From positions 186,001-250,000 of the forward strand of contig JAKLGK010000007.1 in the NCBI GenBank assembly GCA_022710725.1: 64,000 nt of DNA. The letters are read 5' to 3'. The stretch's first letter is position 1; each line of letters starts with the position of its first letter. Position numbers and translations under genes: made by a program. This DNA is from Verrucomicrobiota bacterium (GTDB lineage Bacteria; Verrucomicrobiota; Kiritimatiellia; CAIQIC01; JAGNIJ01). This document shows positions 32,209 through 49,753 of the stretch, in pieces. The notes under the pieces are model-generated. The model was not told the origin of the DNA. It was given only the letters and a program-made list of their open reading frames with translations, and ran no database searches.

Positions 32209-32241
32209 AGAAACGGGGCGAGGGGGCCCCGCCTCCAGGGC

Positions 32242-33165
32242 TTACTTGAAGATCTCGTTGACCGCCTCGTCGGCCAGGCGTGAACCGACTGCTCCCGTGA
32301 ACCCGCCGACGCCGGCCTCGACGCCGCCGGCGAGGACGCCGATGAGCTTGGTCTTCAGGCTGTTCTTGTCCTGTTCCAGGACTTCCTGGTCCGTGGCGGC
32401 GAGCCGTTCGGCCTGTTTCTTCATCGCCTCGGCCTCGGCCTGCGCCTTGGCGGCGACGTCGCTGGCGTACTCCTGCTCCCAGGCCTCGCGCTCGCTCGCC
32501 ACCTGTTGCATGCCGGCCTGCGCCTGCTCGAGGGCCTTCTGGCGGCGCTCTTCCCGCAGCGAGGAAAAGCTCTGCAACGGCGCCCCGCTCTCCGGCTCCT
32601 CGTATTCCACGGCGGCCGGCGCGGCCTCCGCGTCGCGCAAGGGATTGGATTTCCGGGGCGGCGGCGCCGCGGCCGGCTGCGCGCGGGCGGTCATCTCGCT
32701 CAACAGGTCCACGCCGCCCTGCATGTCGGATGCCAGCCAGCTCTCCACGCCCCAGCGGCGGAAGTCCTCGTAGGCGGACACGGGGCCCGGCCAGCCGGTC
32801 TCGCGTCCCAGGTTCTCCAGGTAGGCCATGTCCTGCGCCTGCTCGGCGCGGCTGAAGGCGTCGATGAAATCCTCGAACTGCTGCCGGGCGTTGTCGCCCA
32901 GGCGCGCCTCGAGGTCGCCGCGGATTGTCTGCTGCAGGGCGCCGGTCCAGCGGTCGAGGGCCGCCCGCAGGCCCGCCTGGTCGGCCGCCGGGGCCTGGGC
33001 GATGACGTCCGCGCCCTGGGTCTCCACCTGGTCGAGCAGGAGGTAGCGCAGGTAGTTGGCCATCAGCGCGCCGGACGGGGTTTCCGGTATGGCGGCGCGG
33101 GCCGTGAACAGGCCCGCCGACAGGGCCAGGCATCCGGCCAGGAACAGACAGGTTGCTCGGTTCAT
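32242..33165 (-). CDS. Secreted helical protein, divergent paralog of the 110-residue module family
   Basis: The protein has 307 aa with a signal peptide (1-24, FLAGCLALSAGLFTARA). The middle is acidic and Pro/Ala-rich; residues about 195-265 form a long charged coiled coil. The end, 'EQDKNSLKTKLIGVLAGGVEAG' and on to 'NEIFK', lines up with the end of the 110-residue module of proteins A, B and C (EQDKN ... NG.G.G.K ... IF), but with many differences. The gene is last in the minus-strand series, 31 bp after the FlgT-like lipoprotein. Function unknown. The relationship to A-C is an inference from spacing and key residues. Confidence 0.75.
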   Translation of the reverse strand: MNRATCLFLAGCLALSAGLFTARAAIPETPSGALMANYLRYLLLDQVETQGADVIAQAPAADQAGLRAALDRWTGALQQTIRGDLEARLGDNARQQFEDFIDAFSRAEQAQDMAYLENLGRETGWPGPVSAYEDFRRWGVESWLASDMQGGVDLLSEMTARAQPAAAPPPRKSNPLRDAEAAPAAVEYEEPESGAPLQSFSSLREERRQKALEQAQAGMQQVASEREAWEQEYASDVAAKAQAEAEAMKKQAERLAATDQEVLEQDKNSLKTKLIGVLAGGVEAGVGGFTGAVGSRLADEAVNEIFK

Positions 33166-33196
33166 GCGCCCTCCTGCCCGCGGCGGGGCGCGGGCG

Positions 33197-34099
33197 TTAT
33201 TCCGCGACTTTCAGGTTGATCTGACCCGACCCGACTTCCAGCACCTGGAACTTGATGTCTTCCGGCGGCTTCAGGACGATGGTTTCCGACAGCTCCTCGA
33301 TGGGCACGAGGGAGTCCAGCTCGAAGACGGCCACGCCGGCGGTGTAGTTGCGCTGGACCACGTTGGCCGTCTGCTTCTTGAGGTCGATCAACTGCTCGCG
33401 GATGGCCTTGAGCTTCCACATCTGGTCCACGCCGCCCACGGTCACCGTCACGTGGTTAAGCTTCCCCTGCTGGCGCCCGCCGGTCCGGGTCCAGGCGTCC
33501 AGCATCTCGGGGACGAGCCGGTCGAGGCTCTTTTTCCCGGCCGTCTTGATCGCCTTGGCGCTGCCGCTGACATCGTCGAGGCCGATGACCGTCGCGTCCT
33601 CGGAGGCGGAGGCGATCGTCGCGGAATTGTCGGTGCGGACGGCGCGGAGGGTGGCCGCGGCCTGGTAGGAGCGGAGGTTGGTGTCGCTGATGCGGCGGGC
33701 GGAGGGCTTGGCGACCACCTCGCCGATCACAACGAGATCCGCGCCGAACTGCAGGCCCAGCGCGGCGGCGCCCCGGTTGTCGCCGGCCATCTTCATCACT
33801 TCCTGGCCCTTGCCGAGATTGGATTGGACCATGTCCTGGTCCACGACCTGGACGTTCTCCTCCAGCAGCATGTCGATGGCCATGGCCTCGACCTCGGCGG
33901 TGGGGATCGTGCCGAGGCTCTGCTCGTCCACCAGCAGCATGACGCGCGGCAGCTGGGAGGTCAGCTTGGCCTGGCGTACGGCCTCGGCGATCTCGGCCTC
34001 CTCCTCTTCCTCCGGGGTGGCCTGGGGGGGTGTCGCGCACGAGCACAGCAGGGCGGCCGTCGCCGCGCACAACCACCGCAGAAGGATCCAACGCTTCAT
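33197..34099 (-). CDS. Putative lipoprotein, TolB/FlgT-like N-domain
   Basis: The protein has 300 aa. The signal ends at a lipobox-like 'ALLCSCATPP'. An acidic patch 'TPEEEEEAEIAEAV' follows. The core 'RVMLLVDEQSLGTIPTAEVEAMAIDMLLEENVQVVD' and 'GLQFGADLVVIGEVVAKPS' follow the alternating pattern of the domain that in CsgG, TolB and FlgT proteins binds partners at the outer membrane. Two similar halves may be present (30-175 and 190-300). It lies 12 bp downstream of the CsgG-like gene and was probably made with it. Anchoring in the outer membrane is inferred. Confidence 0.75.
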   Translation of the reverse strand: MKRWILLRWLCAATAALLCSCATPPQATPEEEEEAEIAEAVRQAKLTSQLPRVMLLVDEQSLGTIPTAEVEAMAIDMLLEENVQVVDQDMVQSNLGKGQEVMKMAGDNRGAAALGLQFGADLVVIGEVVAKPSARRISDTNLRSYQAAATLRAVRTDNSATIASASEDATVIGLDDVSGSAKAIKTAGKKSLDRLVPEMLDAWTRTGGRQQGKLNHVTVTVGGVDQMWKLKAIREQLIDLKKQTANVVQRNYTAGVAVFELDSLVPIEELSETIVLKPPEDIKFQVLEVGSGQINLKVAE

Positions 34100-34111
34100 G
34101 GGGCCTCCCGA

Positions 34112-34696
34112 TTAATGGCTTTTCCGCCACTCGTTGTACAGCGCCGCGACCATGCAATGGACCATGTACCGGGCGTGTTCGGGGAGCGTCACGTCCCTCC
34201 GTTCGGCCCGCTCGGCCAGGTCCACGCTCCAGACCACCTTGCCCGTGTCGCAGGCGATCAGCCGCGTGGAGATGCCGACGACGGGGTAGGCCCGCGCGCC
34301 GATGGCGACGGTCCCGTACTCGTCCACGGTGCCGATGATCACGCCGTCGGCGCCGAGCATGGTGCCGATCTCGACGGCCTTGGCCGCGGAGAGGCCCGCG
34401 AGGGACAGCTCGGATTCGTTGAGCACCTGGGCCATCTGGCTGCGCTCGACCAGCTCGTAGCGCTCCGAGCGGAGCATCTCGGTGACCATCATGTCCGACA
34501 CGGAGTTGCCGATCAGCTCGGTCGGGGCCTTGAACGGCATGATGGCGACCTTGTGCACCGAGTACTGCTTCGGCATCACGTAGATGTTCGCCTTGCTGAC
34601 GGTGGAGGCGAAGTACTTGTCCTTGGGCGAGGCGCAGCCCGTCGCGAAAAGGGCCGCCAGGACGCCGAACAGCATGTTGCGTACGAAGTTCTTCAT
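34112..34696 (-). CDS. CsgG-like lipoprotein
   Basis: The protein has 194 aa from the ATG at 34696; the frame is open upstream but the signal peptide fixes the start. Signal 1-22 ends at 'LFATGCASPKD', a lipobox with Cys. The CsgG-type domain is clear: 'VHKVAIMPFKAPTELIGNSVSDMMVTEMLRSERYELVERSQM' in sequence, then 'GTMLGADGVIIGTVDEYG' and 'VVGISTRLIACDTGKVVWS'. CsgG forms the curli export pore, but many short CsgG-fold lipoproteins, like this one, lack a clear pore-forming hairpin. It may be an assembly factor. Its place among exported proteins suggests a role in their passage or anchoring. Confidence 0.85.
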   Translation of the reverse strand: MKNFVRNMLFGVLAALFATGCASPKDKYFASTVSKANIYVMPKQYSVHKVAIMPFKAPTELIGNSVSDMMVTEMLRSERYELVERSQMAQVLNESELSLAGLSAAKAVEIGTMLGADGVIIGTVDEYGTVAIGARAYPVVGISTRLIACDTGKVVWSVDLAERAERRDVTLPEHARYMVHCMVAALYNEWRKSH

Positions 34697-34707
34697 GGGT
34701 GTTTTCC

Positions 34708-35304
34708 TCAAGGGGCTTGCGTGCGTTCCCGGATGGCCTTCTCGATGCGTTGGAACAGGGTGTCGTAGACGTCGCCAAGTTGGATCTCCACGGATTCCTC
34801 CTTGGCCGGGGCGTTGATGATCACATCCCGCCGGTCTATGCGGGCGGGGTAGGACATCGCCGGCAGAGAGCCGCGCCGGGAGAGGACGATGCGCTGGCTG
34901 GTCTGGTCCTTGGGCCATTTCTCGATATGGGCGACCATTTCATCCCAGCGCATCCACTGGTCCTTCTCGGACGTGCGTTTCTGGATGGCGGTGCGACGCC
35001 ACTCGAAGCTGGTGATGTTCTCCTCCTTGGGCCCGAGCGGCTCGAGTCGCTTCTCGGTGGAGGCCCGGATCATGCCGCTGGCCCGGTCCACCGTGTCGAG
35101 CTTCCAGCCCAAATCCTGGAGGACGGCCACCGTCGCCGCGAAGACGGCATCTTCCGGGGCGGAGAAGATGCGGGTCTGCATGGTGGATCGCTCTTCCGGC
35201 GCCATGCCGGCCGAAGTGATAGGGCGGGTCGGCTTGGGCGGTTTCTGGCATCCGGCCAGCGCCACGATCGCCAGGCCGAGCATGATGGAATTGCGTAGTA
35301 TCAT
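34708..35304 (-). CDS. Lipoprotein of unknown function
   Basis: The protein has 198 aa from the ATG at 35304 with a GGAGGG ribosome site. The lipobox is canonical: 'IVALAGCQKPP'. The mature protein opens with a short Pro-rich stretch, then 'SAPEDAVFAATVAVLQDLGWKLDTVDRASGMIRAS', an alpha/beta pattern found in small outer-membrane lipoproteins that pack against CsgG-like partners. It lies 11 bp upstream of the CsgG-like gene, so both are probably on one message. I cannot name the family. Confidence 0.8.
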   Translation of the reverse strand: MILRNSIMLGLAIVALAGCQKPPKPTRPITSAGMAPEERSTMQTRIFSAPEDAVFAATVAVLQDLGWKLDTVDRASGMIRASTEKRLEPLGPKEENITSFEWRRTAIQKRTSEKDQWMRWDEMVAHIEKWPKDQTSQRIVLSRRGSLPAMSYPARIDRRDVIINAPAKEESVEIQLGDVYDTLFQRIEKAIRERTQAP

Positions 35305-35359
35305 ACGTTTTCCCTCCGGTCGGTGCGTTCCTCGATTCAGCCTGCGAACCGCTTTGCTA

Positions 35360-35743
35360 TTACGGGCGTCGAGTCTCCAACTTTCGGAGCCGAGTTTCCA
35401 GATCGTTCAGCCGTTTGTCAATTTTATCCAGACGCGCCTCCAAGTCGGTCAACCGCCGCTCGAACGGTTGCCGGGCGCGCAACCCTCGGGGGCTGCCGAG
35501 CAGTTTTTCCAGATCCTCCACCGCTTTCTCCAACTTCGCGATCTGCGTGCTGAAGTCCGGCGCCGCCGGGGCCGGCGTGGCGGCAGGGGTCGCCTCGGGC
35601 GTTGAGGCCCAGATGTTTTCTGTCGCCCGTGAGCCTTCCTGTGCGGGAGCGAGCCCGACGGTAAACAGGGTTCCAAGCAAAGCCGCGGCAAGAAGGGAGC
35701 AGATTCTCTGCCGGCAATCCGTCCTGTTAAGTTCATTGACCAT
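35360..35743 (-). CDS. Small secreted coiled-coil protein
   Basis: The protein has 127 aa from the ATG at 35743. Residues 9-35 are a signal peptide (ICSLLAAALLGTLFTVGLAPAQ). An Ala/Pro/Thr linker is followed by an almost unbroken heptad pattern from about 63 to 125 ('LEKAVEDLEKLLG' and 'LTDLEARLDKIDKRLNDLETRL'). It probably forms a periplasmic trimer or dimer. Its start overlaps the end of the protein A 3' frame by 11 bp, so translation is coupled. Confidence 0.75.
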   Translation of the reverse strand: MVNELNRTDCRQRICSLLAAALLGTLFTVGLAPAQEGSRATENIWASTPEATPAATPAPAAPDFSTQIAKLEKAVEDLEKLLGSPRGLRARQPFERRLTDLEARLDKIDKRLNDLETRLRKLETRRP

Positions 35744-36926
35744 ATTCAGTTCTCTTCTTGGCCGCCGCGATGCAGGCATCGCAGGCGTTCTGGATGCTCC
35801 CGTGTCGGTTCATATAATTCCCTTGGTTGTCGTTGTACCCAAATCCCCAGCTTTCGCTGCTTAACTTCGTGGCCGGCCGCCCGCAGTGCGGGCAGATGAT
35901 CTCCGGCTTGGTGGGGATGTCGGTCTTCACAGGCGTGGACGGCGGCTCCGGCGGCTCGTCATAGGGCACCCGCGTGGGCGGTTCGGGCTCATTCTCGTAC
36001 TCTCCGGGATCCACGGAGACGCCATAATCGTCGCCGGACGGGTACTCGCTCCCGGGGCCGGGGTCCACGGATACCCCGTACCCGCTCTCGCTGCCCGGGT
36101 CCACGGAAACCCCATAGCCATCTCCACCGGATGAACCCCCGGACTCGCCGCCACCCGACGTATGGCTCGTTGGAGTGTGAGCGACCTGGCTGCCGCCGGG
36201 GGATCCTCCACCGTATCCGCCCCCGCCGCCGCTTCCTCCTCCGCCCCCGCCCGAAGAACCGCCGGTGCCGCCCGTGCTCGCGGTCTGCGGCGGATCCTTC
36301 TTGCCGGAATCGAAGATCTTGTTGCCGACGCCCTCGCCCATTTTTGTGCCGAAATGGCCGGCCGTGGTCTTGACCCCCGTGCCCACGCCGTTGATGACGG
36401 CGTTCAGGAGTTGGTTCTTGTTCTTGTCCTGCTCGATCCGGACGGCCTGCTGGCCGGCGGCGGCGATGGCGACCGCCTCCTGCCCGCCCTGGTCCCGGGT
36501 CTGCTTCGCGGCTTTCATCGTCTCGTTCCCGACGTTCGATGCGCGTTGTAGTTCCGAGTACGCGCCCATCCCCGCCAGGCCGTTCGCCGTCCTCCGCTCC
36601 GTGATCTCGCTGCGCTGGCCGATCATTTGGCTTAATGTTTCCGTTTCGACGCTGGTGTAGGGGGTCGTCCGGGACGGCGCCGCCACTTCGGCGTCCTTCA
36701 GGGACTGCTGTTCATGGGATGCCAAGTCTTCAGCGGTTGGCAAGTCGCAGTATTGGGCCAGTTCTTCCGTCGAAGAAAACAAGGCCTCCTTTCCTGCTCC
36801 CCCACAATTCGGACAGGAATCCCCATAGAACGGGCTCCAAATCATATTACACTTTACGCATTCCAGCATTCTCACGGTGCGTTTATATGACTCTGCGGGA
36901 TAGTCTTTTTTCCATCCGCACTTCAA
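35733..36926 (-). CDS. Protein A, 3' part: Zn-ribbons and 110-residue module (frameshifted)
   Basis: The frame has 397 codons from a TTG at 36926, with no signal peptide and no good ribosome site. It is best read as the second part of protein A: removing one G from the G7 run at 36946-36952 joins it to the upstream frame and keeps CxxC motifs on both sides. Parts: Cys pairs (CVKC, CPNC), the shared module at residues 101-210 (36297-36626), a Gly/Ser-rich linker, three 'YGVSVDPG' units, and a C-terminal 'CPHCGRPATKL ... CDAC' ribbon. A start at the ATG at 36869 is possible if the frames are really separate. Confidence 0.75.
   Translation of the reverse strand: MKCGWKKDYPAESYKRTVRMLECVKCNMIWSPFYGDSCPNCGGAGKEALFSSTEELAQYCDLPTAEDLASHEQQSLKDAEVAAPSRTTPYTSVETETLSQMIGQRSEITERRTANGLAGMGAYSELQRASNVGNETMKAAKQTRDQGGQEAVAIAAAGQQAVRIEQDKNKNQLLNAVINGVGTGVKTTAGHFGTKMGEGVGNKIFDSGKKDPPQTASTGGTGGSSGGGGGGSGGGGGYGGGSPGGSQVAHTPTSHTSGGGESGGSSGGDGYGVSVDPGSESGYGVSVDPGPGSEYPSGDDYGVSVDPGEYENEPEPPTRVPYDEPPEPPSTPVKTDIPTKPEIICPHCGRPATKLSSESWGFGYNDNQGNYMNRHGSIQNACDACIAAAKKRTEYGQ
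36003..36125 (-). repeat. Three tandem YGVSVDPG units
   Basis: Three copies of the octapeptide YGVSVDPG separated by 6-12 acidic or Gly residues in the linker of protein A. The DNA copies are similar ('GGGTCCACGGA' type on the plus strand), so the expansion is recent. Confidence 0.7.
36297..36626 (-). other. 110-residue module of protein A
   Basis: Residues 101-210 of the 3' frame, from MIGQRSE to IFDSGKK. By hand count 60 of 110 residues equal those of protein B and 53 of 110 those of protein C, with no gap. It is helical first, then Gly-rich ('NGVGTGVKTTAGHFG'). Confidence 0.85.
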
Positions 36927-36942
36927 ACAATTGAAGGATAGT

Positions 36943-39450
36943 TTACCCCCCCTCCGTGTTTCCTCCTATACAAGTTCTCCCGTGCGTTGGACATACGGCT
37001 CTTGGATCGGCGTCGCATCCGCAATTCCGAGCGAGCCCAAGGGCGATGGCTCCCACCTGTTCAAACGCAGAGCCAAACAGATCCGTTTGGGCGGCGGGTT
37101 GGGGCACGCTCAATTCTTTGTTCACGTAGAGCGTCTTTTTGGCGGTAGGGGAAGCGTCGACCTCGGCTGGCTGTTCCGTTTGTTCTGTCGCGCCGTCGCT
37201 GCCGGTGCCGATCGAAAAGCGTGTTTCGTCCGTGCCTTGACCCGCCTCCTCCGGAGGGGGCGGGCCTCCCGCGCCCTGGACGTCAGCCCCCATGCGCGAA
37301 ACGTTGATCACGTTGCCTTCGGGGTCCACTTCGGTGTGGACTTGTCCGATGACATTGCCTTGTTCGTCCACGATGTTCTCGAGATGCAGCGTGCCTTTTT
37401 CGTTGGCCACATATCCCTGGTAAACCGTCTTGGGGCCCTGCTCGCTCTCCGGTGGTTCCTCCCGGGGGGGCAGGGGTTTCGGCTCGATCCGGGCCGGCTC
37501 CTGCTTTTCCTGCGGTGGCTTCTGCTGCTTCTCCACCGGCTTCTTGTCGCCTTTGCGATACAACTCCCTTCGGCTGCTGCCCGGTGCGGATGCCTTGCCT
37601 TCTTTCTCCTCCTCCTTCTCTTTCTCCTTCTCCTCCTCCCAATCCGTCGGCCGGATATCGACGCCGCCGGGGCCGAGCGTGATTTCCGGTTTGGTCGATT
37701 CCGTTGAGGCGACGCGGGGAGGATAGTACTTTTCGGATCCGGTGCTCCGCGGGGGCAACTGGGCTTTGTTGCCTTCCAGTTCTGCCTGGTGACGCTCCCG
37801 CCAATCCGGGGCCTCGGCCTTTTTCTCCTCCACTTTCTGGTTCTGTTCCATGGCTTCGCGGCGGCTCTGCCATTCCATCCGCTGGTCCGAACCAAGGCCC
37901 AAGCCTTCCTTGACGGCCGTGGCGCCCTCCACGACGGGGGTCACCACCATACCCTCCCCGAGCGCGAGCGCTTGTTTGCCGGCGGCCAGGATCCCCGCCT
38001 TGGTGCCGTACCACAATGCCCAGGCATACCCGGCCGGGCCCGTGCCGGATATCTCGCCTTTTTGCACGGCTTGCTTCCACTCCTGGACGGTGGCGTTCGC
38101 CTGGTCGTCCCCGATGTCCACCGCGCCTTGAATGCCCGTGAGGCTGGTCACGCCCATCGCCACGGTCTTGGCCCAGGTCTTCAGGGGCGAGTCGCCCGTT
38201 TTTTCCTCGCCCACCGCGATCTCCGCCGCCTCCTGCACGGCGTGATAGGCGCCGTACAGCAGAAGGATGGTGCCCCCGATCTTGGTGGTCGTGCTGGGTG
38301 GTTTGGGGGCTGTTGGCGCGGGGGTCTTGCCGGTTGGCAGCGGCGAGGAGGTCAGTTTGATCTGCTTCCCCTTCGTCATGCGCTCGTCGAACTGGCTTTG
38401 GGTCAGGCGCTCCCCCGTTTGGGGATTGACATAACGGGTCTTGCCTTCAGGCGTGGTGGTCTTCTGGTAGCCGTTGGCCTCGGCAATGACCTCCCCGGCG
38501 CCGTGGTTGATGGCCTTTTGCGTCGTTCCGTTAAGATGGCTGTTGTATTCGATCGCCCGGGTCCTGGCGTCCAGAAGCTTGTTTTTGGCCGCCTGGATTT
38601 TACCGGAATCCTTACTGGCCTGCGCCTTTTTCAGGTTTTCTTTCGCCTGGTCGACGTCTCTTTTAATTTGGCTCTTTTCCTGCCGGATCTGGGCTTCCTC
38701 GTTTCGCACCGCCTCCACGGCTTTCTGTTTCGCCTGCTGCTGCCACTCGTTGATATCCTTGATGCCAGCTTGGGCGGGGTCGCCGGTTTTGTGGAGGATC
38801 TCCGCCTGCTTCCGGAAAACGGGATCCTTCACTTCGCCGATATCCATCACCTTCTTGGCGGTCTTGCCCAGGTTCTGCAGATCGTCTTGGGTCATCTGCG
38901 CCGGGGGCTTCGTCAGGGCGTGCCCGCCGTCCGCCAGTTTCTTGCCCAGGATGTCATTGACCGTCGGTTTGGGCAGGCCGGTCTTGGGGTCTACGGCAGG
39001 CTTGCCCGTTTTGGGGTCAATCCTCCCGCGGAAACTCTCATCATCTCCGGAAATATTGCGGGCATCGCGCGCACTGCTGCCGACGGGGTCCGCGTTGTTA
39101 TCTGATGCGTGGGCGGTGATCTCCTTGATCGGTTTGCCATCCTTGCCGGTGATGGTCATTGAATCGCCCCGTTCGGATACATTGTAGCCGAGTTCTTTGG
39201 CGGCCGCGCGAACCCTCCGATATTCATCCGCTGTGAGCTTCTTGGTGTCGATATCGCGCCCGCCGGGATTCCCGATCCCGTCCTGCTGGATTTTCACGCC
39301 GGACTTTTTGGACAATTCGTCCACGGCTTGCTGTGCGGGGTCGGGGGGAGGCGTTGCGGGGTCAGCGGCCGACGCGTTGGTGATGCAAAATACGGCCGGG
39401 ATCAGGCCCGCCATGAACAGAATCCGACGCCCTGCGGATGCATGCTTCAC
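36943..39450 (-). CDS. Protein A, 5' part: secreted mosaic protein (frameshifted)
   Basis: The frame has 835 codons from a GTG that overlaps the TPR gene's stop by 4 bp. Signal peptide 1-28 (FMAGLIPAVFCITNASA). Then an N-terminal domain shared with protein B ('DGIGNPGGRDIDTKKL'), long charged coiled coils (about 230-320), a Pro-rich spacer, a Gly/Ala-rich hydrophobic region (about 390-500, glycine-zipper-like), a Lys/Glu-rich stretch, the 'GY ... EQGNV.GQVHTE' unit and the start of a Cys cluster (CGCDADPRAVCPTHGRTC). It stops right after a G7 run, and the next frame continues the Cys cluster. Intact, A would be about 1,240 aa. Confidence 0.8.
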   Translation of the reverse strand: MKHASAGRRILFMAGLIPAVFCITNASAADPATPPPDPAQQAVDELSKKSGVKIQQDGIGNPGGRDIDTKKLTADEYRRVRAAAKELGYNVSERGDSMTITGKDGKPIKEITAHASDNNADPVGSSARDARNISGDDESFRGRIDPKTGKPAVDPKTGLPKPTVNDILGKKLADGGHALTKPPAQMTQDDLQNLGKTAKKVMDIGEVKDPVFRKQAEILHKTGDPAQAGIKDINEWQQQAKQKAVEAVRNEEAQIRQEKSQIKRDVDQAKENLKKAQASKDSGKIQAAKNKLLDARTRAIEYNSHLNGTTQKAINHGAGEVIAEANGYQKTTTPEGKTRYVNPQTGERLTQSQFDERMTKGKQIKLTSSPLPTGKTPAPTAPKPPSTTTKIGGTILLLYGAYHAVQEAAEIAVGEEKTGDSPLKTWAKTVAMGVTSLTGIQGAVDIGDDQANATVQEWKQAVQKGEISGTGPAGYAWALWYGTKAGILAAGKQALALGEGMVVTPVVEGATAVKEGLGLGSDQRMEWQSRREAMEQNQKVEEKKAEAPDWRERHQAELEGNKAQLPPRSTGSEKYYPPRVASTESTKPEITLGPGGVDIRPTDWEEEKEKEKEEEKEGKASAPGSSRRELYRKGDKKPVEKQQKPPQEKQEPARIEPKPLPPREEPPESEQGPKTVYQGYVANEKGTLHLENIVDEQGNVIGQVHTEVDPEGNVINVSRMGADVQGAGGPPPPEEAGQGTDETRFSIGTGSDGATEQTEQPAEVDASPTAKKTLYVNKELSVPQPAAQTDLFGSAFEQVGAIALGLARNCGCDADPRAVCPTHGRTCIGGNTEGG
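36946..36952 (-). other. G7 run at the frame break of protein A
   Basis: Seven G on the minus strand directly before the TAA of the 5' frame. With six G the reading continues as T-E-G-G-K-L-S-F-N-C-L-K-C-G-W into the 3' frame. It may be an assembly error, a mutation, phase variation or a slippery site. Confidence 0.8.
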
Positions 39451-40223
39451 GGTCGTCGCCCCTTGGTTCGCAGTTCCTCCAGCGTGGCCCGCGCCAGTTG
39501 CCGGTTCTCCTCCAGGGCGCGGTCGTTCGCCGCGATGCGTTCGAGCATCTCCGTTGCGCGACCGGCCTTGTTTTCCTCCAGCAGCATCAAGGCCAGTCCC
39601 AGTTGGAGCGTGTCGTTGCCGAGGGCCCTGGCCAGCCGCCCGGCCAGGAAGCGCGCGCCGCGCTCGCTTTGTTCATCCTGCCGGTACGCGGCGCACAGCA
39701 TGTCCACGCGGGCCGGGTGGATGTACGGGTTGCCCAGCATGAGGATTCTTTCCAACTTCTCGATGGCGCGGTCATACTCGCCGCGCAGGAAATGCCACTT
39801 GGCCAGGGTGTCCAGGGCGAAGAGATTGTCCGGATCGATGATCAGCGCCGACTCGAAATGCTCTTCGATCAACTCCTCCGCCGGCAGGTAGGTCCCGTCG
39901 GCGAGCAGGTAAATGGTTCCGAGAAGGAGCCGGGCCTGCAGGTGGTCCGGGTCGTCCTGCACGGCCGCGAGGGCGATGGATTCCGCGAGGATCAGCGCGT
40001 CGACAGACTCTGTTCCGACATGGTCCCGCATGTGCCGGGCCGCGTTCTGCAGCCGAACTTCCGTCAGGGCGGCCAGGGTTTCCTCGGCGGGGTTTCGGTT
40101 GAAGGCCTCGACGGCGGTCGCCTCGCCAGGAAAGGGATTGGCGTCTTCGGGCAGGACCTCCTGCCCGAAGGCACGCAGGATTGCGGCCAGCAGAACGAGA
40201 GAGGCGATCCCCTTGGTGTTCAT
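39447..40223 (-). CDS. Secreted TPR protein
   Basis: The protein has 258 aa from the ATG at 40223. Signal peptide 1-20 (IASLVLLAAILRAFGQ). At least four TPR-like helix pairs follow, for example 'HLQARLLLGTIYLLADGTYLPAEELIEEHF' in pieces, 'SALIIDPDNLFALDTLAKWHFLRGEYDRAIEKLE' and 'LGNDTLQLGLALMLLEENKAGRATEML'. It is likely a periplasmic protein-binding scaffold. Its stop overlaps the protein A start (GTGA), so it is the dedicated upstream partner of A. A good promoter precedes it. Confidence 0.82.
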   Translation of the reverse strand: MNTKGIASLVLLAAILRAFGQEVLPEDANPFPGEATAVEAFNRNPAEETLAALTEVRLQNAARHMRDHVGTESVDALILAESIALAAVQDDPDHLQARLLLGTIYLLADGTYLPAEELIEEHFESALIIDPDNLFALDTLAKWHFLRGEYDRAIEKLERILMLGNPYIHPARVDMLCAAYRQDEQSERGARFLAGRLARALGNDTLQLGLALMLLEENKAGRATEMLERIAANDRALEENRQLARATLEELRTKGRRP

Positions 40224-40245
40224 AAAGGGCGACTCGTTTCGCGTA

Positions 40246-40273
40246 ATGCTAGGAATTGAGGGGGGATAGTCAA
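40246..40273 (-). promoter_or_regulatory. Promoter of the TPR-protein A operon
   Basis: TTGACT (40273-40268), 16-nt spacer, TAGCAT (40251-40246) on the minus strand. Transcription starts near 40239, 16 nt before the ATG. The rest of 40224-40427 holds no gene. Confidence 0.55.
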
Positions 40274-40427
40274 GCGAAAAAGAGCGGAACCTGTTAATAA
40301 TGAGGCGGTAACGAGCGCCCGCATGTCGCAAATGTCTATCGGGCAATGGGGGTATGGCGGCGCTCGATAAACTTCGCCCGCCGCCGGCGGACGCGCCTCT
40401 TCGCCAGGCCGGCATTCCAGTTCCCGG

Positions 40428-43400: not shown

Positions 43401-44993
43401 CTCCGGCGTTGTGGAAGGAGGTTTCACAGGTTCGGTTGTGGCCGGCGGAGTTTCCGGGGCTGATGTCGGAGGTTTCACGGGCTCCGTGGACGGGGGCTTG
43501 ACCGGTTCTGGAGTCGTGGGTGGCTTCACGGGTTCCGGTGGTGTGGAAGGCGGCTTTACCGACTCCGTGGTGCCGGGCGGCTTGACCGGCTCCGGAGGTG
43601 TCGAGGGCGGTTTGACGGGTTCCGTAGTGGTTGGCGGCTTCACGGGCTCCGGCGTCGATGGGGGTTTGACGGGTTCCGTGGTCGCGGGCGGTTTGACCGG
43701 TTCGGGAGCTGTGGTCGGCGGCTTTACGGTTTCCGGCGGTGCGGTTCCCGTCTTGCCGGGTTCCGGTGTGGAAGAAGGAGGCTTCGCGGGTTCGTGCGTC
43801 GTCGCGGGCGGCTTGTCGCCGCCGGTTCCCGCGCCCGCTCCCTTCCCGGGTTCGGGGGGGGGCGAGGGCGGCTTGGCGGGCTCCGTGGATGAGCCACCTG
43901 TTTTCGCCGGCTCGGTCTTCGGCGGTTCGGATTTGGGCGTCGTGTTCTCGATCTTCTTGTTGGCGTCCGTGTATTCCTTCGCGGACTTCTTGTTGCCCAG
44001 CTCGGTCTCCTTCTTGGCCAGGTCGTCCCTCATCCGCTTGTTCGACTCCGACTGGGCCTTCGCCGTGTCCCGCGCGTTCTTGACCGTCTCGTCCAACTGC
44101 TTGATGCGGTTCTGGGCCTTGGCGTTCTTGACCTCTTCCGACTCGCCGAAATTCTGCTCGCCCGACTCGTAGGGATCGGCGTCCACCTTCATCTTTCCCG
44201 ACACGGGATCCACCGGCTTGCCCGTGGCCTCCTGCATCTTGGCCGCGATCTTGTTCATCGTCCGGACATCGCCCTTGGCCTTGGCCGCCTCGTACTTCCG
44301 GTTCAGGTCCTCGACGTAGCCCTCCGGATCGTACTGCGCGTTGGGCGACTTGATCCCCTCGTGCTCGAGGGCGCCGGACCGCGTGTAGCCCTCGGGGTTC
44401 TTCGCGCGCCCCGCCGCAGACTTCGGCGTCTCGGGCTCCCAGATTTTCGTGTCGGCGGTATGGTCCTGGTACATCCCCGTCTCGGGATCGTACGTGACCT
44501 TGTGCCCCTGTCCCTTGAGGTGGTCGGCGGCGGCCTTGGCGGCTTCGGGGGTATCCGCCGTGATGTCCATGTCCGAATGCGGGCTCGACGGGTTGCTGCC
44601 GCTGCTCTTCAGCTTGCCGCCTTCGGGCGTGTTCTGGAGCGACTCCCAGGCCTTCGCGGCGGGATGCTTGGCATTGTACTCGTTGCGCAGCGCGGTTTTC
44701 TGGTTGACGTAGTCCTGCTGGAGCTTCTTGTAGCCCGGGTTCTCGGTGTCCACCGTGCCGTCCGACTTCTGGTATTTCTTGGCCGCCGCGTCCGTCGCGT
44801 CCTGCAGGTTCTTGACCTTGGCGTCGTACTCGTTGCGCAAGCCGTCGATATCCGTGGGGGGCGGGGGAGGCGGTTGGGGCAGGAGGGTCCAATTACTATG
44901 GTTATCCTTGTCCTTCGCGTCCTGCGCGCCGGGGGCCGCCCACGACGCCAGGAGCATCAGGGCCATCAGCAGGATCGGTTTTCGCATGTTCAT
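40428..44993 (-). CDS. Protein B: 1,521-residue secreted mosaic protein with Zn-ribbons
   Basis: The ATG at 44993 has a GGGAGGGTGA ribosome site. Order: signal peptide (1-23); helical region; N-terminal domain shared with A ('SGSNPSSPHSDMDITADTP'); coiled coils to about 360; a Pro-rich region with about 17 'E-P-V-K-P-P'-like units (about 370-600); a Gly-zipper segment ('GGAKAGAGIGTALGDGPGAVVGGLIGAIGG' region); a second Pro/Lys spacer; the 'GWVKDGNG...KVTETKD' unit; an acidic helical part; the 110-residue module (1206-1315); a Gly/Ser linker; and a tail with seven CxxC pairs. No enzyme motif is recognised. It probably sits at the cell surface; the cysteines imply metal binding. Confidence 0.85.
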   Translation of the reverse strand: MNMRKPILLMALMLLASWAAPGAQDAKDKDNHSNWTLLPQPPPPPPTDIDGLRNEYDAKVKNLQDATDAAAKKYQKSDGTVDTENPGYKKLQQDYVNQKTALRNEYNAKHPAAKAWESLQNTPEGGKLKSSGSNPSSPHSDMDITADTPEAAKAAADHLKGQGHKVTYDPETGMYQDHTADTKIWEPETPKSAAGRAKNPEGYTRSGALEHEGIKSPNAQYDPEGYVEDLNRKYEAAKAKGDVRTMNKIAAKMQEATGKPVDPVSGKMKVDADPYESGEQNFGESEEVKNAKAQNRIKQLDETVKNARDTAKAQSESNKRMRDDLAKKETELGNKKSAKEYTDANKKIENTTPKSEPPKTEPAKTGGSSTEPAKPPSPPPEPGKGAGAGTGGDKPPATTHEPAKPPSSTPEPGKTGTAPPETVKPPTTAPEPVKPPATTEPVKPPSTPEPVKPPTTTEPVKPPSTPPEPVKPPGTTESVKPPSTPPEPVKPPTTPEPVKPPSTEPVKPPTSAPETPPATTEPVKPPSTTPEPIKPPATTPEPVKGPGTTAEPPTPPATTEPVKGPGTPAEPTTTEPVKAPSTPEPAKPPATTPEGVKAPGAPSTGTGPTPPGETWQNPLTGKSLPVGTSGSKIIDGTAKVLESKGAQGTLNVVGTVMVAKDGIQTINKVNEAAAKGDLKTANVEGSKGIGRLGGGWLGSIGGAKAGAGIGTALGDGPGAVVGGLIGAIGGGILGAWAGEKTGETVGPAVIDTVRDGGEKIMDKYYGTDTGGTGGGKGGTTPGGWDTSGKPGDFDRIERVTGGANKDKGPSGPTTSGFTPPSVHVSSSGGSTLTPVPSGSGSTYKPPTTSSGGIDISVPGQDIDDIDFGTPPPSGGGKGGKTPTTTKPPVRTTPPPPPKKEPVKKPEPPKPPPVVKPQPPLPPPEVTQPPGIQVVDKGWVKDGNGVIKVTETKDANGKVIKVTHTEYGPDGKVIKTTDYPGGTGQGVTTPGGQPPVNGPDSTGVTEPPGATTGGQDTATPPAEGTTDQPPPPSGGDITLGGGGLGKPPDAANHSEAYNKLYELGWETERIMELEKIICPKNSAPGFHVVDKAEEAAWEPYRKRLEELGKQRDALLNDPNVSYGDKSAFGSGRWDCAKAIADGRVKKEPFLTAGTTVSNVTGSPAIDDNLQPAIDRMTGRDLRTSEAAALPQESVETSFDRDLPLETVIQERNTQMEEKSENGVAIMGAHTDVKNASNAGHDMIRDAKYTRDAGGQDAQKIASDNQQKIRIEQDKNKNPILNGVLNGIGNGTKTAAGHLGTGLGKGIGDKIFDSGKKTETASTGGTSGSTPGSSGGTSGPRVSGGTSGGGPDGESYGGTSGGTTSGGQTAPGGGPVCVKCGAPGYMEFPGVGWLCHDCEAAGYGYPPDGTTGTETSGSQPVIMADALCPVCGQMYNPAYGHNCPGASAPTPPPEPPPAEMDSITCNECGYVHQFPKGTTPPRACPRCGCGPDSDKVTCTACGHSWAVPAGQRPSSCPSCGVSF
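41049..41378 (-). other. 110-residue module of protein B
   Basis: Residues 1206-1315, from VIQERNT to IFDSGKK, ungapped against A and C. The segment 'RIEQDKNKN' is identical with A, and 'KTAAGHLG' with C. Confidence 0.85.
43200..43920 (-). repeat. Pro-rich VKPP repeat region of protein B
   Basis: About 17 degenerate units of the form E-P-V-K-P-P followed by 3-6 Thr/Pro/Ser/Ala residues; eleven keep the exact VKPP core. The DNA units vary, so it is an old expansion. It is expected to be extended and surface exposed. Confidence 0.85.
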
Positions 44994-45012
44994 GCTTCAC
45001 CCTCCCGCGGCT

Positions 45013-45474
45013 TTACTGCGGCGCCCCCTGCAACAGCGAACCGACCAGCGTCTCCCACTCGGGTTCGGCCTGCTTCATCCGCTCCTGCACCATTTCCATC
45101 ACGCGCGCCGAGATCGCCGGGGAGAGCGCCGCGAACTTCCGGCCCGTCCGGCTCTCGTAAAACCGGACGATCTCCGCCAGCTCTTTCTCCGTGAGCTCAC
45201 CCATGTACAACTCGATCACGGCCGGCTTCAGCACCTCCCAGCCGATTTGCTTGGACAGGAAGGAGCGAATGGCTGTTTCCGAGCCCGCGAGGCCGGGCTC
45301 CGTGGCGACCGCCTGCTTGACCAGGGCATCTATCGCCGACTGGCACATGGTCTCCACGCTGAAGAGGTCCATGAGCTTCTCGACCAGCTGACGGTGCGCG
45401 ATCGGCCCCGCCGGCGCGGCGTTCGAAGCAAGGACAAGGATCAGGGCCAAGGCGGACAGTTTCCACGTCTTCAT
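45013..45474 (-). CDS. Secreted DUF2059-like protein
   Basis: The protein has 153 aa from the ATG at 45474 with a TGGAGGTTG ribosome site. Signal peptide 1-21 (LSALALILVLASNAAPA). 'MGELTEKELAEIVRFYESRTGRKFAALSPAISARVMEMVQERM' (in pieces) matches the DUF2059 pattern, in which 'FY.S..G.K' is the hallmark. The family is periplasmic and of unknown role. It lies 19 bp upstream of protein B and has its own promoter, so it is B's operon partner. Confidence 0.85.
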   Translation of the reverse strand: MKTWKLSALALILVLASNAAPAGPIAHRQLVEKLMDLFSVETMCQSAIDALVKQAVATEPGLAGSETAIRSFLSKQIGWEVLKPAVIELYMGELTEKELAEIVRFYESRTGRKFAALSPAISARVMEMVQERMKQAEPEWETLVGSLLQGAPQ

Positions 45475-45519
45475 GGCAACCTCCATTGAACACGCCACAC
45501 GGCGGCCTCTCTGGTACGA

Positions 45520-45548
45520 ATTATAATGAACCGATCGGCCGCCGAAAA
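45520..45548 (-). promoter_or_regulatory. Promoter of the DUF2059-protein B operon
   Basis: A perfect TATAAT (45525-45520), 17-nt spacer, weak TTTTCG -35 (45548-45543) on the minus strand. The leader is about 39 nt with a GGAGG ribosome site. Confidence 0.55.
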
Positions 45549-45632
45549 CAAGTATTTTCAGCCTCTTTTGGCGTGCGACAGGACCCACGACGACGCGACG
45601 GGGGCCACGCCGCTTTCGAGCGCCGTCGCGTG

Positions 45633-48620
45633 CTACGGGACGGGCGGCGGGTAGAGGTCCGGCGAGTCATCCGGAACGCTTGTGGGCGTGGTCTGCGAAT
45701 CGATGCCCCCGGGATTGTCTCCTCCTTCGACCGTGGTGTCCGTCTCCGAGCCGTCGGTGGTATCCGTGGTGTCGGATGATGTGCCGTCGGAAGTCCCGGT
45801 GTTGCCGGATGGGCCGCCGGGATAATCGTATCCTTTCTTCTCGCAGTCGTGGCACAGCCAGCCGACGCCATCGAACTCCATGTACGCCGGCCCGCCGCAG
45901 ATCACGCAGACGGGGCCGCTGTCGACGGTACTGGACGACGTCGTGGTCTCGGTATTTGTCTCGCCGCCCACATCCGGCTCGTAGTTGTGGCCGTTGTAAC
46001 TTGTGATATTCGTATTGCTGCTTGAATTGACCGTTTGCGGTCCGACGGGCGGGTGGTCCGTCCCGGTATTGGTGCGCCCCGTGTTGCCGGTGTTGGTGCC
46101 CTTATTGTTGCCGCCGAAGATCGAGTCCCCGGCCTTGCCGCCGAGGTTCTCGCCCAGGTGACCCGCCGCGGTCTTGACTCCGGTGTTCACCCCATTGACG
46201 ACGCCGTTCAGGAGTATGTTCTTGGTGTTGTTCTGTGCGATTCGGAGGTTGTGCTGATTTTCGGTCCCGATCTTCACGGCCTCCTCGCCGCCCGCGTTCA
46301 GCGTTATCTTCGCGTTCTTGAGCGTCTCGTTGCCGCTGTTCGAGGCCTTGTCGATCGCCGTGTTGTTGCCCATCACCTCCAGGCCCGTGTCGTATTTCTT
46401 CGCCATCCTCTCGTTCTGCTGCCCGATCATGCCGGACAACACCTCGGGCCTGCTGATACTGATCGCCTCGGTATCCTTCAAGGACTCGGCTTCGGATTTA
46501 CGCATATCCGCAACCGAGAGGGACTGATCGGTTTCGTCTTCAGCCAATGTTTCCGCCTTTATCTTGCCGTTGCCGAGATCCCGAATTTCGGCTTCTGACA
46601 GGATCATGGTTCGGAATCCGCAGTTCGGGCAAACATCCCGCCATTGATTGACCTTCGACGGCTCTGGGGGGGAACAAGACAAATATTCCGGATGCTCTTC
46701 GAGGACCGACGTCATTGCTTGGCCGCATTTTGGACAGGCATGGCTGGCGCTGGCCATGGAGGTTTCCAGATTGCTCCATTTATCCGGTGTGTTGATGGCG
46801 TTAACAGTCGTCTGGTGTTGAATGTCCAGGACGGTGCCACAGTTGGGGCAGACGATTTCAGTGGTGTAGCCCGCGCGTGATGAGTCGTCATCCTTTACCC
46901 TCGTAACCGCCTCCTTGAATTTGCTGCCACAGTGAAGGCAAAACTTCCCCGGCTCTTTTGCGTCGCATCCCGACGGGGCGGTTAAATAGTCGGCTTTTGC
47001 GCAATTTTCACATGCCGACAATTTGGAGTTGAAGGGCAAGGGAGTCATTTTTGATGACGTGACTCCATCCGTCCCCTGTTCGAATCTTTTCCCGCAAATC
47101 GCGCAAGTCAGGAATGACGATGTGGCAATCGCCGGCATCTGGTTGCCCGTTTGATTTCCGCCAACCTGGCCGTTGTTTCCCCGATTGTTGCCGTCTTGAT
47201 TTGTATCGGTCTGGCCCTCGCCCGTGCTGGCGGGATAGGTTGTAGTACTGATGACATTTCCGTTGGAGTCGTAGTCGGTGTGGGTGACGCTGACGACGTT
47301 GCCGTTGGAATCTGTCGTCTCGGTCACCTTGGTGGTGCCTGTACTGTTTTTAGCCCAGCCCTTCACGATGGTCGTCCCCCCAACCGGGGACTGAGGCTCG
47401 TTCTGCTCGCCGGCGTGTATTCCTCCTTGGTTCCCATTATTGTCGCCGCCCTGGTTGCCGGCCCAAACATTGACGCCGCCTTCATTGTCCCCCCCGGGCG
47501 GATTCCCTTGGTTCTGGCCCGGATTGTTCCCGTCGGGTTGGTTGTTGCCCCCTTTGGTGCCGTCCTTGGTGCCGCCTCGATTATTCCCACCGGGATTATT
47601 GTCGCCCTGGTTGTTTCCCGTGCCGTTGTTGTCGCCGGGCTGGTTCTCGCCCTGGTTGTCCCCGCCGGCGTTATTCCCGCCCGTATTCCAGTTGTTGTTC
47701 CCCCCTTGGTTATTGCCCTGGTTGTTGGCGCTTCCGTTATTTCCGACCGGGACAGGCGTGCCCCCCGAGCTGTTTCCGCCGCCGTTATTACCTCCCGGAA
47801 CAGAGCCACCGCTCCTGTTGTTCCCGGTGTTGCCGCCGGGGGGAGCGGTGCCGCCTTGGCTATGGCCCTGGTTGTTTCCTGCATTGCCGCCAGGAATAGC
47901 GGTTCCGCCCGTGTTGTTGCCGGTGGCAGTCGTAGAACCGGGCCGTGTTGTGGACGTGATGGCCGGCCCCTTCGGCGTCCCCTGGTTGCTCCCCTTCTGA
48001 TTTTGGTTGGAGGATTTCGATCCTGCATGTGCCTTCTGCCATGCCACGGGATCATTGCCGGGCTTATTTACTACGTTTTTTGAGCCTGCATATCTTGTCT
48101 TTGCCTGTTGGTTGTAAAGATCGTTCTTGAGAATGGACACGATCTGGCCCCCCGTGTATTCCCAGAGTTTCTTGCCGATAAAGCCACCTGTCGTTCCGCC
48201 TGCCACGGTGCCGACCGGTCCGCCCGAAGAACCCACGGAGCCTCCCAAGACGGTGCCGGCCGCGGTGGAGAAAAACTTGCCCACTCCATCAATCGCTGTG
48301 AGACACGCTTGCCCCCATTTGCCTTCATACAATTCCCCCGCCATTGTCGAACCGCTATCGGTCAGGCTGATTATTTTGCTGCTTTTGGCAATGATCTTGC
48401 AGCCGCTGTCGCCAGGAAACTTTTTGGCCGTTTCGTTGATCAGCTTCCTGGTGGTCCAGCCTACGTTGCTTTTTAAATCCCTATTTACTGGATCCAACTT
48501 GTCCGCAATTGGATCTAAAATTGCATCCAACTTGTCCGAACTGCTGGCGAAGCTTTCGGAAAGCGGAAAAAAGAGCCCCAAGATGAGAATTGTTTTTCGA
48601 GCAGATAGGCCCGCGTTCAT
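45633..48620 (-). CDS. Protein C: 995-residue secreted Asn/Gly-rich mosaic protein
   Basis: The ATG at 48620 overlaps the upstream stop (ATGA) and has a GGAGGAGG ribosome site. Order: signal peptide (1-26, ILILGLFFPLSESFAS); helical part; Gly-zipper-like 'AAGTVLGGSVGSSGGPVGTVAGG' segment (near 125); an Asn/Gly/Gln-rich region (about 225-410); the 'GWAKNSTG...KVTETTD' unit; six CxxC pairs (about 490-680); an acidic helix; the 110-residue module (731-840); a Ser/Thr linker; and 'CVICGGPAYMEFDGVGWLCHDC', nearly the same as in B. The Asn/Gly region resembles curli-type and adhesin repeats in composition only. No catalytic motif is recognised. Confidence 0.85.
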   Translation of the reverse strand: MNAGLSARKTILILGLFFPLSESFASSSDKLDAILDPIADKLDPVNRDLKSNVGWTTRKLINETAKKFPGDSGCKIIAKSSKIISLTDSGSTMAGELYEGKWGQACLTAIDGVGKFFSTAAGTVLGGSVGSSGGPVGTVAGGTTGGFIGKKLWEYTGGQIVSILKNDLYNQQAKTRYAGSKNVVNKPGNDPVAWQKAHAGSKSSNQNQKGSNQGTPKGPAITSTTRPGSTTATGNNTGGTAIPGGNAGNNQGHSQGGTAPPGGNTGNNRSGGSVPGGNNGGGNSSGGTPVPVGNNGSANNQGNNQGGNNNWNTGGNNAGGDNQGENQPGDNNGTGNNQGDNNPGGNNRGGTKDGTKGGNNQPDGNNPGQNQGNPPGGDNEGGVNVWAGNQGGDNNGNQGGIHAGEQNEPQSPVGGTTIVKGWAKNSTGTTKVTETTDSNGNVVSVTHTDYDSNGNVISTTTYPASTGEGQTDTNQDGNNRGNNGQVGGNQTGNQMPAIATSSFLTCAICGKRFEQGTDGVTSSKMTPLPFNSKLSACENCAKADYLTAPSGCDAKEPGKFCLHCGSKFKEAVTRVKDDDSSRAGYTTEIVCPNCGTVLDIQHQTTVNAINTPDKWSNLETSMASASHACPKCGQAMTSVLEEHPEYLSCSPPEPSKVNQWRDVCPNCGFRTMILSEAEIRDLGNGKIKAETLAEDETDQSLSVADMRKSEAESLKDTEAISISRPEVLSGMIGQQNERMAKKYDTGLEVMGNNTAIDKASNSGNETLKNAKITLNAGGEEAVKIGTENQHNLRIAQNNTKNILLNGVVNGVNTGVKTAAGHLGENLGGKAGDSIFGGNNKGTNTGNTGRTNTGTDHPPVGPQTVNSSSNTNITSYNGHNYEPDVGGETNTETTTSSSTVDSGPVCVICGGPAYMEFDGVGWLCHDCEKKGYDYPGGPSGNTGTSDGTSSDTTDTTDGSETDTTVEGGDNPGGIDSQTTPTSVPDDSPDLYPPPVP
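46101..46430 (-). other. 110-residue module of protein C
   Basis: Residues 731-840, from MIGQQNE to IFGGNNK, ungapped against A and B. C is the most divergent of the three: EQDKNKN is AQNNTKN, and the SGKK end is lost. Confidence 0.85.
47410..47925 (-). repeat. Asn/Gly-rich low-complexity region of protein C
   Basis: About 170 residues mostly of G, N, Q, P and D in units such as GGNNxGxNQG. The DNA is a series of near-repeats of 'GTTGTT' and 'CCGCC' on the plus strand. It is the counterpart of the Pro-rich region in B. Confidence 0.85.
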
Positions 48621-49753
48621 GGTTGCTCCTCCTCCAGGACAGCCGAAGGAAGTTGCGCTTGTATTTCTTTCCGCTGGGTAAAAACAGTGGGTACATCGAG
48701 ATACCCGACTCGCTGGAATTGAAACCCTGCGTCCGTTTTTTGAAAAGACAGGGACAGGCCGAGACTGGGCTGGCTGTCGCAGGTCATGAATACGATGCTC
48801 TCGGTCCCATCGGTGAGGAATCCGGCTGGAGAGAACGAATCGATCTTGCCTTGAAGCGGCTCGAGGTAGTCGAGGGTGCGCGAATCAAGGGATTGACGCC
48901 AGGGTGAAGTGCAGGTGGCGAGCCCGTGGTCTATGTCCTCGGCGCAGCGGTCGATTTCCTTCCGCAAGGCTTCGTACTCCGGAGCGTTCAGGAGCTTGGC
49001 CACGGCGCCGTAGGACTGCCCAAGCTGTATGCCCGCCGCGGCGGACAAGGTCTCCTCGACCTGTTCGGAGGTTGCTTCCGCCCCCGTCGGGGAGGGAACC
49101 CAGACCGTGGATGGAAGCCCTTCAAACGCTTCGATGGTTTGAACGGCGCCCCATTGCACAGCCAGTACAGGGGTTATATGCGCGGCCAACTGGCGCCAAA
49201 GGGGGCTCATGCTAATGGGCAATTTCCCGCCTTTCCTTAAGTACTCCGCGGGCACGAATTGCAGTCTTGATATTTCCGTGCGGTCTTCGCGAAAGGTCCA
49301 GAGCGTTAAAAGAGCGGTATCGCTCCAGGGATGGAAGAAAAGCACCTTCATGCTGGCTCCTTCAGAAGGGCCCAAGCTGAACACAGAGGTGTTGAAAAAG
49401 TAGGACCAAAGTTTATCGCTATCACTCTTGTCGAAGGTATTGGAATTAATGCGTGTCAGATCCGCGCGGGCCTCATTGCCCATGATATCCTCGAAGGCCT
49501 GTGCCGGTGACGCGACACAGGCGGACTTGAAGACGGCGACCCGTTTCAGAAGCAATCCTTCGATTTCCTGGAAGGATAAGGGATCCTGTGCGCGATCGTC
49601 ATGGGCCGTCGCGTCCTGGGCGTTTGGCCACGCATCGTGCTCTGGTTGTTGGGCATACGCGGAAGGCCATATCGTGGAGTTGATGGCCCCGAACATCGGG
49701 GCCACAAGAAAGGAAAGCGAGAGAAGCATCCGCCTTGATGATGGATGTTGCAT
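48617..49753 (-). CDS. Secreted protein of unknown function, partner of protein C
   Basis: The protein has 378 aa from the ATG at 49753. Signal peptide (MLLSLSFLVAPMFGAINS to AYAQQ). The rest mixes helices and strands, with few Cys, and contains 'KVLFFHPWSDTALLTLWTF' and 'RQSLDSRTLDYLEPLQGK'. I recognise no family. The stop overlaps the start of protein C by 4 bp. A, B and C thus each follow a smaller secreted protein (TPR, DUF2059, this one). Confidence 0.75.
   Translation of the reverse strand: MQHPSSRRMLLSLSFLVAPMFGAINSTIWPSAYAQQPEHDAWPNAQDATAHDDRAQDPLSFQEIEGLLLKRVAVFKSACVASPAQAFEDIMGNEARADLTRINSNTFDKSDSDKLWSYFFNTSVFSLGPSEGASMKVLFFHPWSDTALLTLWTFREDRTEISRLQFVPAEYLRKGGKLPISMSPLWRQLAAHITPVLAVQWGAVQTIEAFEGLPSTVWVPSPTGAEATSEQVEETLSAAAGIQLGQSYGAVAKLLNAPEYEALRKEIDRCAEDIDHGLATCTSPWRQSLDSRTLDYLEPLQGKIDSFSPAGFLTDGTESIVFMTCDSQPSLGLSLSFQKTDAGFQFQRVGYLDVPTVFTQRKEIQAQLPSAVLEEEQP

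What the first reader, a model, noticed from the sequence alone, without database searches (positions are those of the whole stretch)
32242..49753. Undescribed cluster of exported mosaic proteins with a CsgG-like lipoprotein
Eleven consecutive minus-strand frames all encode secreted or lipid-anchored products. Three giants (A about 1,240, B 1,521, C 995 aa) share modules, and each is preceded by its own small secreted partner (TPR, DUF2059, unknown), two of them by 4-bp overlap. Three lipoproteins, one CsgG-like, and a coiled-coil protein follow. Seen directly: order, signals, overlaps and shared modules. Known: CsgG-fold lipoproteins serve export at the outer membrane. Inferred: a surface fibre, adhesin or secretion system.
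Basis: partly seen in the sequence, partly recalled or inferred. Interest (0 to 1): 0.87.

Follow-up and report, generated by a model that had tools for sequence, protein, structure and literature searches.

The report
Mosaic exported proteins with shared module
A 17.5-kb block of eleven genes for exported proteins, present or absent as one unit, encodes very large, fast-changing proteins that share one C-terminal cassette and are found only in genomes that also carry a conserved set of small lipoproteins; it looks like an undescribed cell-envelope system whose function is not yet known.

Summary
Eleven minus-strand genes (32,242-49,753) encode products with signal peptides or lipoboxes. A same-genus genome is collinear on both sides with one small gene in their place, so the cluster is a discrete accessory unit. 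Correction: giant A is split by a one-base break at a G7 run (36,946-36,952). The module of A, B and C also forms the C-terminal half of P12 (32,242-33,165). Among 193 relatives it occurs in 31 genomes, all of which carry the P11 lipoprotein gene; a 388-genome phylum sample agrees (17 of 17). Gene order giant, PelC-like, P11, P12 is conserved. Between close loci P11 stays 80-88% identical while giants match over only part of their length: N-terminal regions (nucleotidyltransferase-like, RHS, others) are exchanged, the module plus Cys-rich tail is kept. The CsgG-like lipoprotein matches PelC and GNA1162, not CsgG, and lacks CsgG's insertions, so a curli-type pore is not supported. P11 has a CsgG/FlgT-type fold. 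Best reading (0.45): a lineage-restricted outer-membrane-associated assembly holding interchangeable passengers through one docking module. Linkage and exchange are shown; rings, docking and surface exposure are inferred.

The parts
48617..49753 (-). P1: secreted partner of giant C, 378 aa, no known family; overlaps C by 4 bp
   Evidence: a relative (E=2.4e-27) sits beside the C-type giant in L050
45633..48620 (-). Giant C, 995 aa: signal peptide, Gly-zipper region, Gly/Asn-rich stretch, YD-like stretch, zinc ribbons, module, zinc-ribbon tail
46101..46457 (-). Shared module in C
45013..45486 (-). P3: secreted DUF2059 protein, partner of B
   Evidence: PF09832 E=2.3e-15; relatives precede giants in L041, L043, L044, L045, L057
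40428..44993 (-). Giant B, 1521 aa: signal peptide, type I domain, Pro-rich stretch, Gly-zipper, YD-like stretch, module, zinc-ribbon tail
43962..44867 (-). Type I N-terminal domain of B with GS...DxD motif (nucleotidyltransferase-like, suggestive)
41043..41399 (-). Shared module in B
39447..40223 (-). P5: secreted TPR-like protein, 258 aa, partner of A; overlaps A by 4 bp
36943..39450 (-). Giant A, first frame, 835 aa, signal peptide and N-terminal part
36946..36952 (-). G7 run where the reading frame of A is broken by one base
35733..36926 (-). Giant A, second frame: zinc ribbon, module, Gly-rich tail, zinc ribbon
36291..36647 (-). Shared module in A
35360..35743 (-). P8: exported coiled-coil protein, 127 aa
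   Evidence: relatives in six other loci
34708..35304 (-). P9: lipoprotein, 198 aa, no known family
34112..34696 (-). P10: PelC/GNA1162-type lipoprotein of the CsgG superfamily, 194 aa
   Evidence: PF03783 E=1.3e-12; profile vs PDB: GNA1162 4e-7, PelC 8e-7
33197..34099 (-). P11: lipoprotein, 300 aa, CsgG/FlgT-type domain plus a second alpha/beta domain; best marker of the system
32242..33165 (-). P12: exported helical protein, 307 aa, ends with the shared module and has no tail
32245..32541 (-). Module-like C-terminal part of P12
   Evidence: hhalign probability 97.6, E=4e-12
32238..50004 (.). Extent of the accessory unit: G001 matches the window up to about 32,237 and again from about 50,005; one 167-aa gene lies between in G001

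Best explanation
A lineage-restricted envelope assembly with interchangeable passengers. Shown: a conserved core (PelC-type lipoprotein P10, CsgG/FlgT-type P11, helical P12) is encoded next to large exported proteins built as signal peptide, variable region, shared module, Cys-rich tail of about 190 residues; P12 ends with the same module. Inferred: P10 and P11 form ring-like oligomers under the outer membrane, as PelC and FlgT do; the module (a helical stretch plus a Gly-rich segment) is the common docking or co-assembly part through which giants and P12 join them; the passengers are thereby held at, or passed to, the cell surface. The small partners coupled to each giant act as periplasmic chaperones or stabilisers, and the CxxC tails bind zinc.
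For: Co-occurrence of module and P11: 31 of 31, and 17 of 17 in a second sample. In 31 P11 loci P12 follows in 29, a PelC-like gene directly precedes in 23, and a module giant lies upstream on the same strand in 27; most exceptions are at contig ends or have a PelC-fn3 fusion elsewhere in the locus. P12 matches the module at E=4e-12. Fixed architecture: median 192 residues after the module; 154 CxxC in 9,561 residues after it against 16 in 36,471 before it; 44 of 49 proteins. Passenger exchange: L044/L045 P11 88% identical, giants alike over 35% of length; window/L041 84% against 27% (for the window the best pair was the second frame of A). P10 and P11 folds. The unit is all-or-none between two genomes of the genus.
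Against: No experiment and no model of a complex. No outer-membrane barrel in the unit, so surface export lacks a channel. Ring formation is by analogy. Foldseek matches of P11 to FlgT and CsgG have TM-scores near 0.3 on the query, so only part aligns. P8, P9 and the partners are not universal, and some P11 lack a lipobox.
Confidence: 0.45

Rival explanations
1. A polymorphic effector (toxin-like) system: the variable N-terminal regions are effector domains acting on neighbouring cells, the constant C-terminal cassette serves export and delivery, and the coupled small secreted partners are chaperones or immunity proteins.
For: Exchange of passengers at a fixed locus; one giant holds 15 RHS repeats, E=1e-64; a domain with a nucleotidyltransferase-like motif in ten exported giants; Gly-zipper stretches; tandem arrays of module genes in G004 and G013.
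Against: No recognised toxin domain, release protease or immunity family; PADLOC gives nothing solid; the variable part is N-terminal, the reverse of classical polymorphic toxins (PMC3482391); the nucleotidyltransferase match is weak, and small partners are not found with every giant.
Confidence: 0.25
2. A structural scaffold of the periplasm or outer membrane: long proteins with Pro-, Gly- and Ser-rich stretches tether or space the envelope layers, anchored by the lipoproteins, and nothing is exported to the outside.
For: Low-complexity linkers, coiled coil and lipoproteins in one unit; no barrel in the unit; P11 resembles FlgT of the periplasmic H ring.
Against: Rapid exchange of the passenger regions and patchy presence, including absence from a sister species, are unusual for a scaffold; the link to flagella is not supported.
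Confidence: 0.2
3. A curli-type fibre system in which the CsgG-like lipoprotein is the outer-membrane pore.
For: Significant PF03783 match of P10.
Against: Best structural relatives are GNA1162 and PelC; hairpin insertions absent; no curlin match among the eleven products; the giants are far larger than curlins.
Confidence: 0.05

Closest known systems
PelC of the Pel exporter PelBC (PMC12141448)
   Same: P10's profile matches PelC (E=8e-7); both are short outer-membrane-type lipoproteins of the CsgG superfamily
   Different: PelC forms a ring of twelve on the barrel PelB and serves a polysaccharide; here no PelB-like barrel is in the unit and the neighbours are giant proteins
Neisserial lipoprotein GNA1162
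   Same: Best PDB match of the P10 profile (4hrv, E=4e-7), and among the partial matches of the P11 model
   Different: No giant module proteins are part of what is known of it (own knowledge)
CsgG curli secretion channel
   Same: Superfamily of P10, and part of the P11 fold
   Different: P10 lacks the membrane hairpins; no curlin-like substrate
FlgT of the Vibrio flagellar H ring
   Same: Top fold matches of P11 (8z5n, 3w1e)
   Different: Low TM-score; the window's genome has no fliF match and 2 of 31 module genomes do
RHS and other polymorphic toxin systems (PMC3482391)
   Same: Exchange of one end of large exported proteins; RHS repeats in one relative
   Different: Variable end is N-terminal; no known toxin or immunity domain; tied to a lipoprotein set

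Membership tests
CsgG / curli secretion | CsgG-superfamily core | tested here: met
   PF03783, 48 bits against a cut-off of 20.8
CsgG / curli secretion | two membrane hairpins inserted in the CsgG core | tested here: not met
   Alignment with two fuller CsgG-family proteins of the same genome shows the insertions absent from P10; alignment only, no P10 structure
CsgG / curli secretion | curlin-repeat substrates and CsgE/CsgF partners | tested here: not met
   No such Pfam match among the eleven products; the rest of the genome was not searched for them
PelBC exporter | PelC-type lipoprotein | tested here: met
PelBC exporter | PelB-like TPR/beta-barrel protein in the unit | tested here: not met
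   No barrel family matched in the unit; the only TPR-like product is 258 aa
PelBC exporter | ring of twelve subunits | not testable with these tools
   No complex modelling available
Flagellar H ring (FlgT) | FlgT-type fold | tested here: inconclusive
   Foldseek E=9e-7 but TM 0.33
Flagellar H ring (FlgT) | occurrence with flagella | tested here: not met
   No fliF match in the own genome; of the 31 module genomes only G043 and G083 have one
Polymorphic toxin system | exchange of one end of a large exported protein at a fixed locus | tested here: met
Polymorphic toxin system | recognisable toxin domain | tested here: inconclusive
   No Pfam toxin; nucleotidyltransferase-like fold suggested at E=0.09
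Polymorphic toxin system | immunity gene next to the toxin | tested here: inconclusive
   Small secreted partners exist (P1, DUF2059, TPR) but match no immunity family

The most novel reading that the evidence does not exclude
A new export or display route in which a C-proximal cassette (helical, Gly-rich module plus zinc-ribbon tail) is the sorting signal, read by a PelC/FlgT-type lipoprotein assembly with P12 as adaptor, and carrying exchangeable effector or adhesive passengers.
Probability: 0.3. Interest if true: 0.85.

Novelty: categorically new. Interest (0 to 1): 0.62.

Why it matters
P1, P9, P11, P12 and the module have no solid match in Pfam, NCBIfam, PHROGs or PADLOC (P11 and P12 none in PDB sequences either), yet they form a conserved unit across at least 16 families of one class and in one genome of another class. 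If the module is a sorting or docking signal, it would define a new way of placing variable proteins at the outer membrane, and P11 gives a simple marker for finding the system. No paper describing it turned up in the held library; that library is incomplete.

Tried and rejected
CsgG pore. Flagellar link. Phage or plasmid origin: no P11 relatives in viral contigs, phages or plasmids. Homology of A's and the L041-type N-terminal regions to the B type was suspected from DxD-like motifs, but hhalign gave no support. Hits of P12 to human phosphodiesterases are weak (E=0.03) and were set aside. Direct repeats at the unit's ends: none beyond chance length. A whole-protein search with B failed on the server. 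Single tape-measure and defence-library hits (E=2e-4 to 5e-4) fall in Gly-rich or zinc-ribbon stretches and were set aside.

Full report
What is there. Eleven consecutive genes lie on the minus strand from 49,753 down to 32,242, each with a signal peptide or a lipobox-like start (judged by eye). In the direction of transcription: P1 (378 aa), giant C (995 aa), DUF2059 protein, giant B (1521 aa), TPR-like protein, giant A (two frames), coiled coil P8, lipoprotein P9, CsgG-like lipoprotein P10, lipoprotein P11, P12. P1/C and TPR/A overlap by 4 bp. Giant A is interrupted: frame one stops in GAG GGG GGG TAA and frame two continues one base further on. Frame two has no good start and no signal peptide, so A is most likely one protein broken at a G7 run. 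Seven other G or C runs of seven or more lie in the window. Assembly error, phase variation, plain mutation and programmed +1 frameshifting (an AGGAGG lies just upstream) cannot be told apart here, because no relative of A's first frame was found.

A discrete unit. In G001, of the same genus, the flanks are collinear: window 31,772-32,237 matches 7,811-8,276 and window 50,113-51,316 matches 9,055-10,252 of one contig. Between them G001 has one gene for a 167-aa protein with a signal-like start, and none of the unit's proteins is found on that contig nor the module or P11 anywhere in that genome (the genome is 90% complete).

The module. A, B and C share about 119 residues. Its profile finds 24 and, with more members added, 31 of 193 relatives. 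In three of these (G003, G116, G158) the only match is P12, leaving 28 with other module proteins. Those run from 264 aa (cut by a contig end) to 2,958 aa. P12 itself matches the module: hhalign probability 97.6, E=4e-12. The module is a stretch of likely helix followed by a Gly-rich segment that ends in IF.

Neighbours. P11 is found in 37 of the 193, six of them without the module and five of those six only as partial matches; every genome with the module has P11. A phylum sample of 388 gives 17 module genomes, all with P11; it overlaps the first sample but adds G442 and G318, the latter of another class and with the same gene order. The genomes are related, so the hypergeometric value 3e-26 overstates independence. 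In 31 P11 loci P12 follows in 29, a PelC-like gene directly precedes in 23 and a giant lies upstream in 27. In many loci a PelC-like domain fused to fibronectin type III repeats (about 800-950 aa) lies beside the giant.

Architecture of the giants. Of 49 module proteins outside P12, 44 have CxxC after the module: 154 CxxC in 9,561 residues after it, 16 in 36,471 before it; median tail 192 residues. What precedes the module varies: a type I domain of about 300 residues in ten giants, a second type in L041, L043, L044 and L057, RHS repeats in L054, short helical starts in the tandem arrays of G004, G009 and G013. Loci with nearly identical P11 carry different giants: L044 and L045 have P11 88% identical and giants alike over 35% of the length.

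Type I domain. Ten of ten members keep G90, D99 and D101 (domain numbering) in the pattern GS...DxD, and eight keep D139. The AlphaFold2 model is confident (pLDDT 90, pTM 0.82). Foldseek gives no significant match; among the top hits nucleotidyltransferases recur (Cid1, TUT7, DncV, tRNA nucleotidyltransferase, LnuA), best E=0.09. I had proposed this fold from the motif before the search, but it remains suggestive only.

The lipoproteins. P10 matches PF03783 over positions 36-157 of 210, and its profile matches GNA1162 and PelC structures, not CsgG. Two fuller CsgG-family proteins of the same genome have insertions and a C-terminal part that P10 lacks. P11 has no Pfam, NCBIfam or PDB sequence match; its model (pLDDT 81) resembles FlgT, CsgG, GNA1162 and PelC in part, and P10 and P11 are related to each other (E=3e-8). 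The genome has no fliF match, and only two module genomes do, so a flagellar role is unlikely.

How it may work. The simplest account is one assembly: P10 and P11 at the outer membrane, P12 and the giants joined to it through the common module, passengers at the free end. Shown: linkage, shared module, constant cassette, exchange of passengers. Inferred: rings (PelC forms a ring of twelve, PMC12141448; FlgT a ring, own knowledge), docking, surface exposure. The effector reading gains from RHS repeats, the nucleotidyltransferase-like domain and the exchange, and loses from the missing toxin, protease and immunity domains. I put the assembly at 0.45, effectors at 0.25, a scaffold at 0.2, a curli-type pore at 0.05; the first two could both be true.

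Limits. Signal peptides were judged by eye. Low-complexity linkers can inflate alignments; filtering was on for the cross-locus comparisons. Gene calls in the relatives are stop-to-stop frames, so their lengths are upper bounds.

Noticed in passing
window 19,532-29,477: A second stretch of about 10 kb, holding a cas1 gene (26,231-27,262, PF01867 E=1e-98), is absent from G001, where the matching flanks are 66 bp apart: an accessory stretch with CRISPR-Cas near the cluster.
   Followed up: partly
window 36,946-36,975: AGGAGG about a dozen bases before the G7 run and stop codon of giant A, reminiscent of programmed +1 frameshift sites; may be chance.
   Followed up: no
L057:5104-7596, L046:5367-8210, L050:11560-14067, L041:12528-15056: A PelC-like domain fused to several fibronectin type III domains, beside the giants in many genomes but not in the window.
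   Followed up: partly
L126:6626-19999, L127:3917-14383: Tandem arrays of three or four small module proteins (440-540 aa) beside one giant of about 2,000-2,960 aa.
   Followed up: partly
L054:13528-18672: A giant with 15 RHS repeats followed by a Gly-zipper, the module and zinc ribbons.
   Followed up: partly
window 50,019-51,404 (+): OmpA/TSP3 beta-barrel-type protein next to the unit, kept in G001 at 80% identity, so not part of the accessory unit.
   Followed up: yes
G005:C56:10807-11304, G079:C59:812-1429, G114:C285:5075-5653, G128:C68:5555-6058: Frames of about 390-420 aa that match only the first two thirds of P11, in genomes without the module: a distant P11-like family.
   Followed up: no
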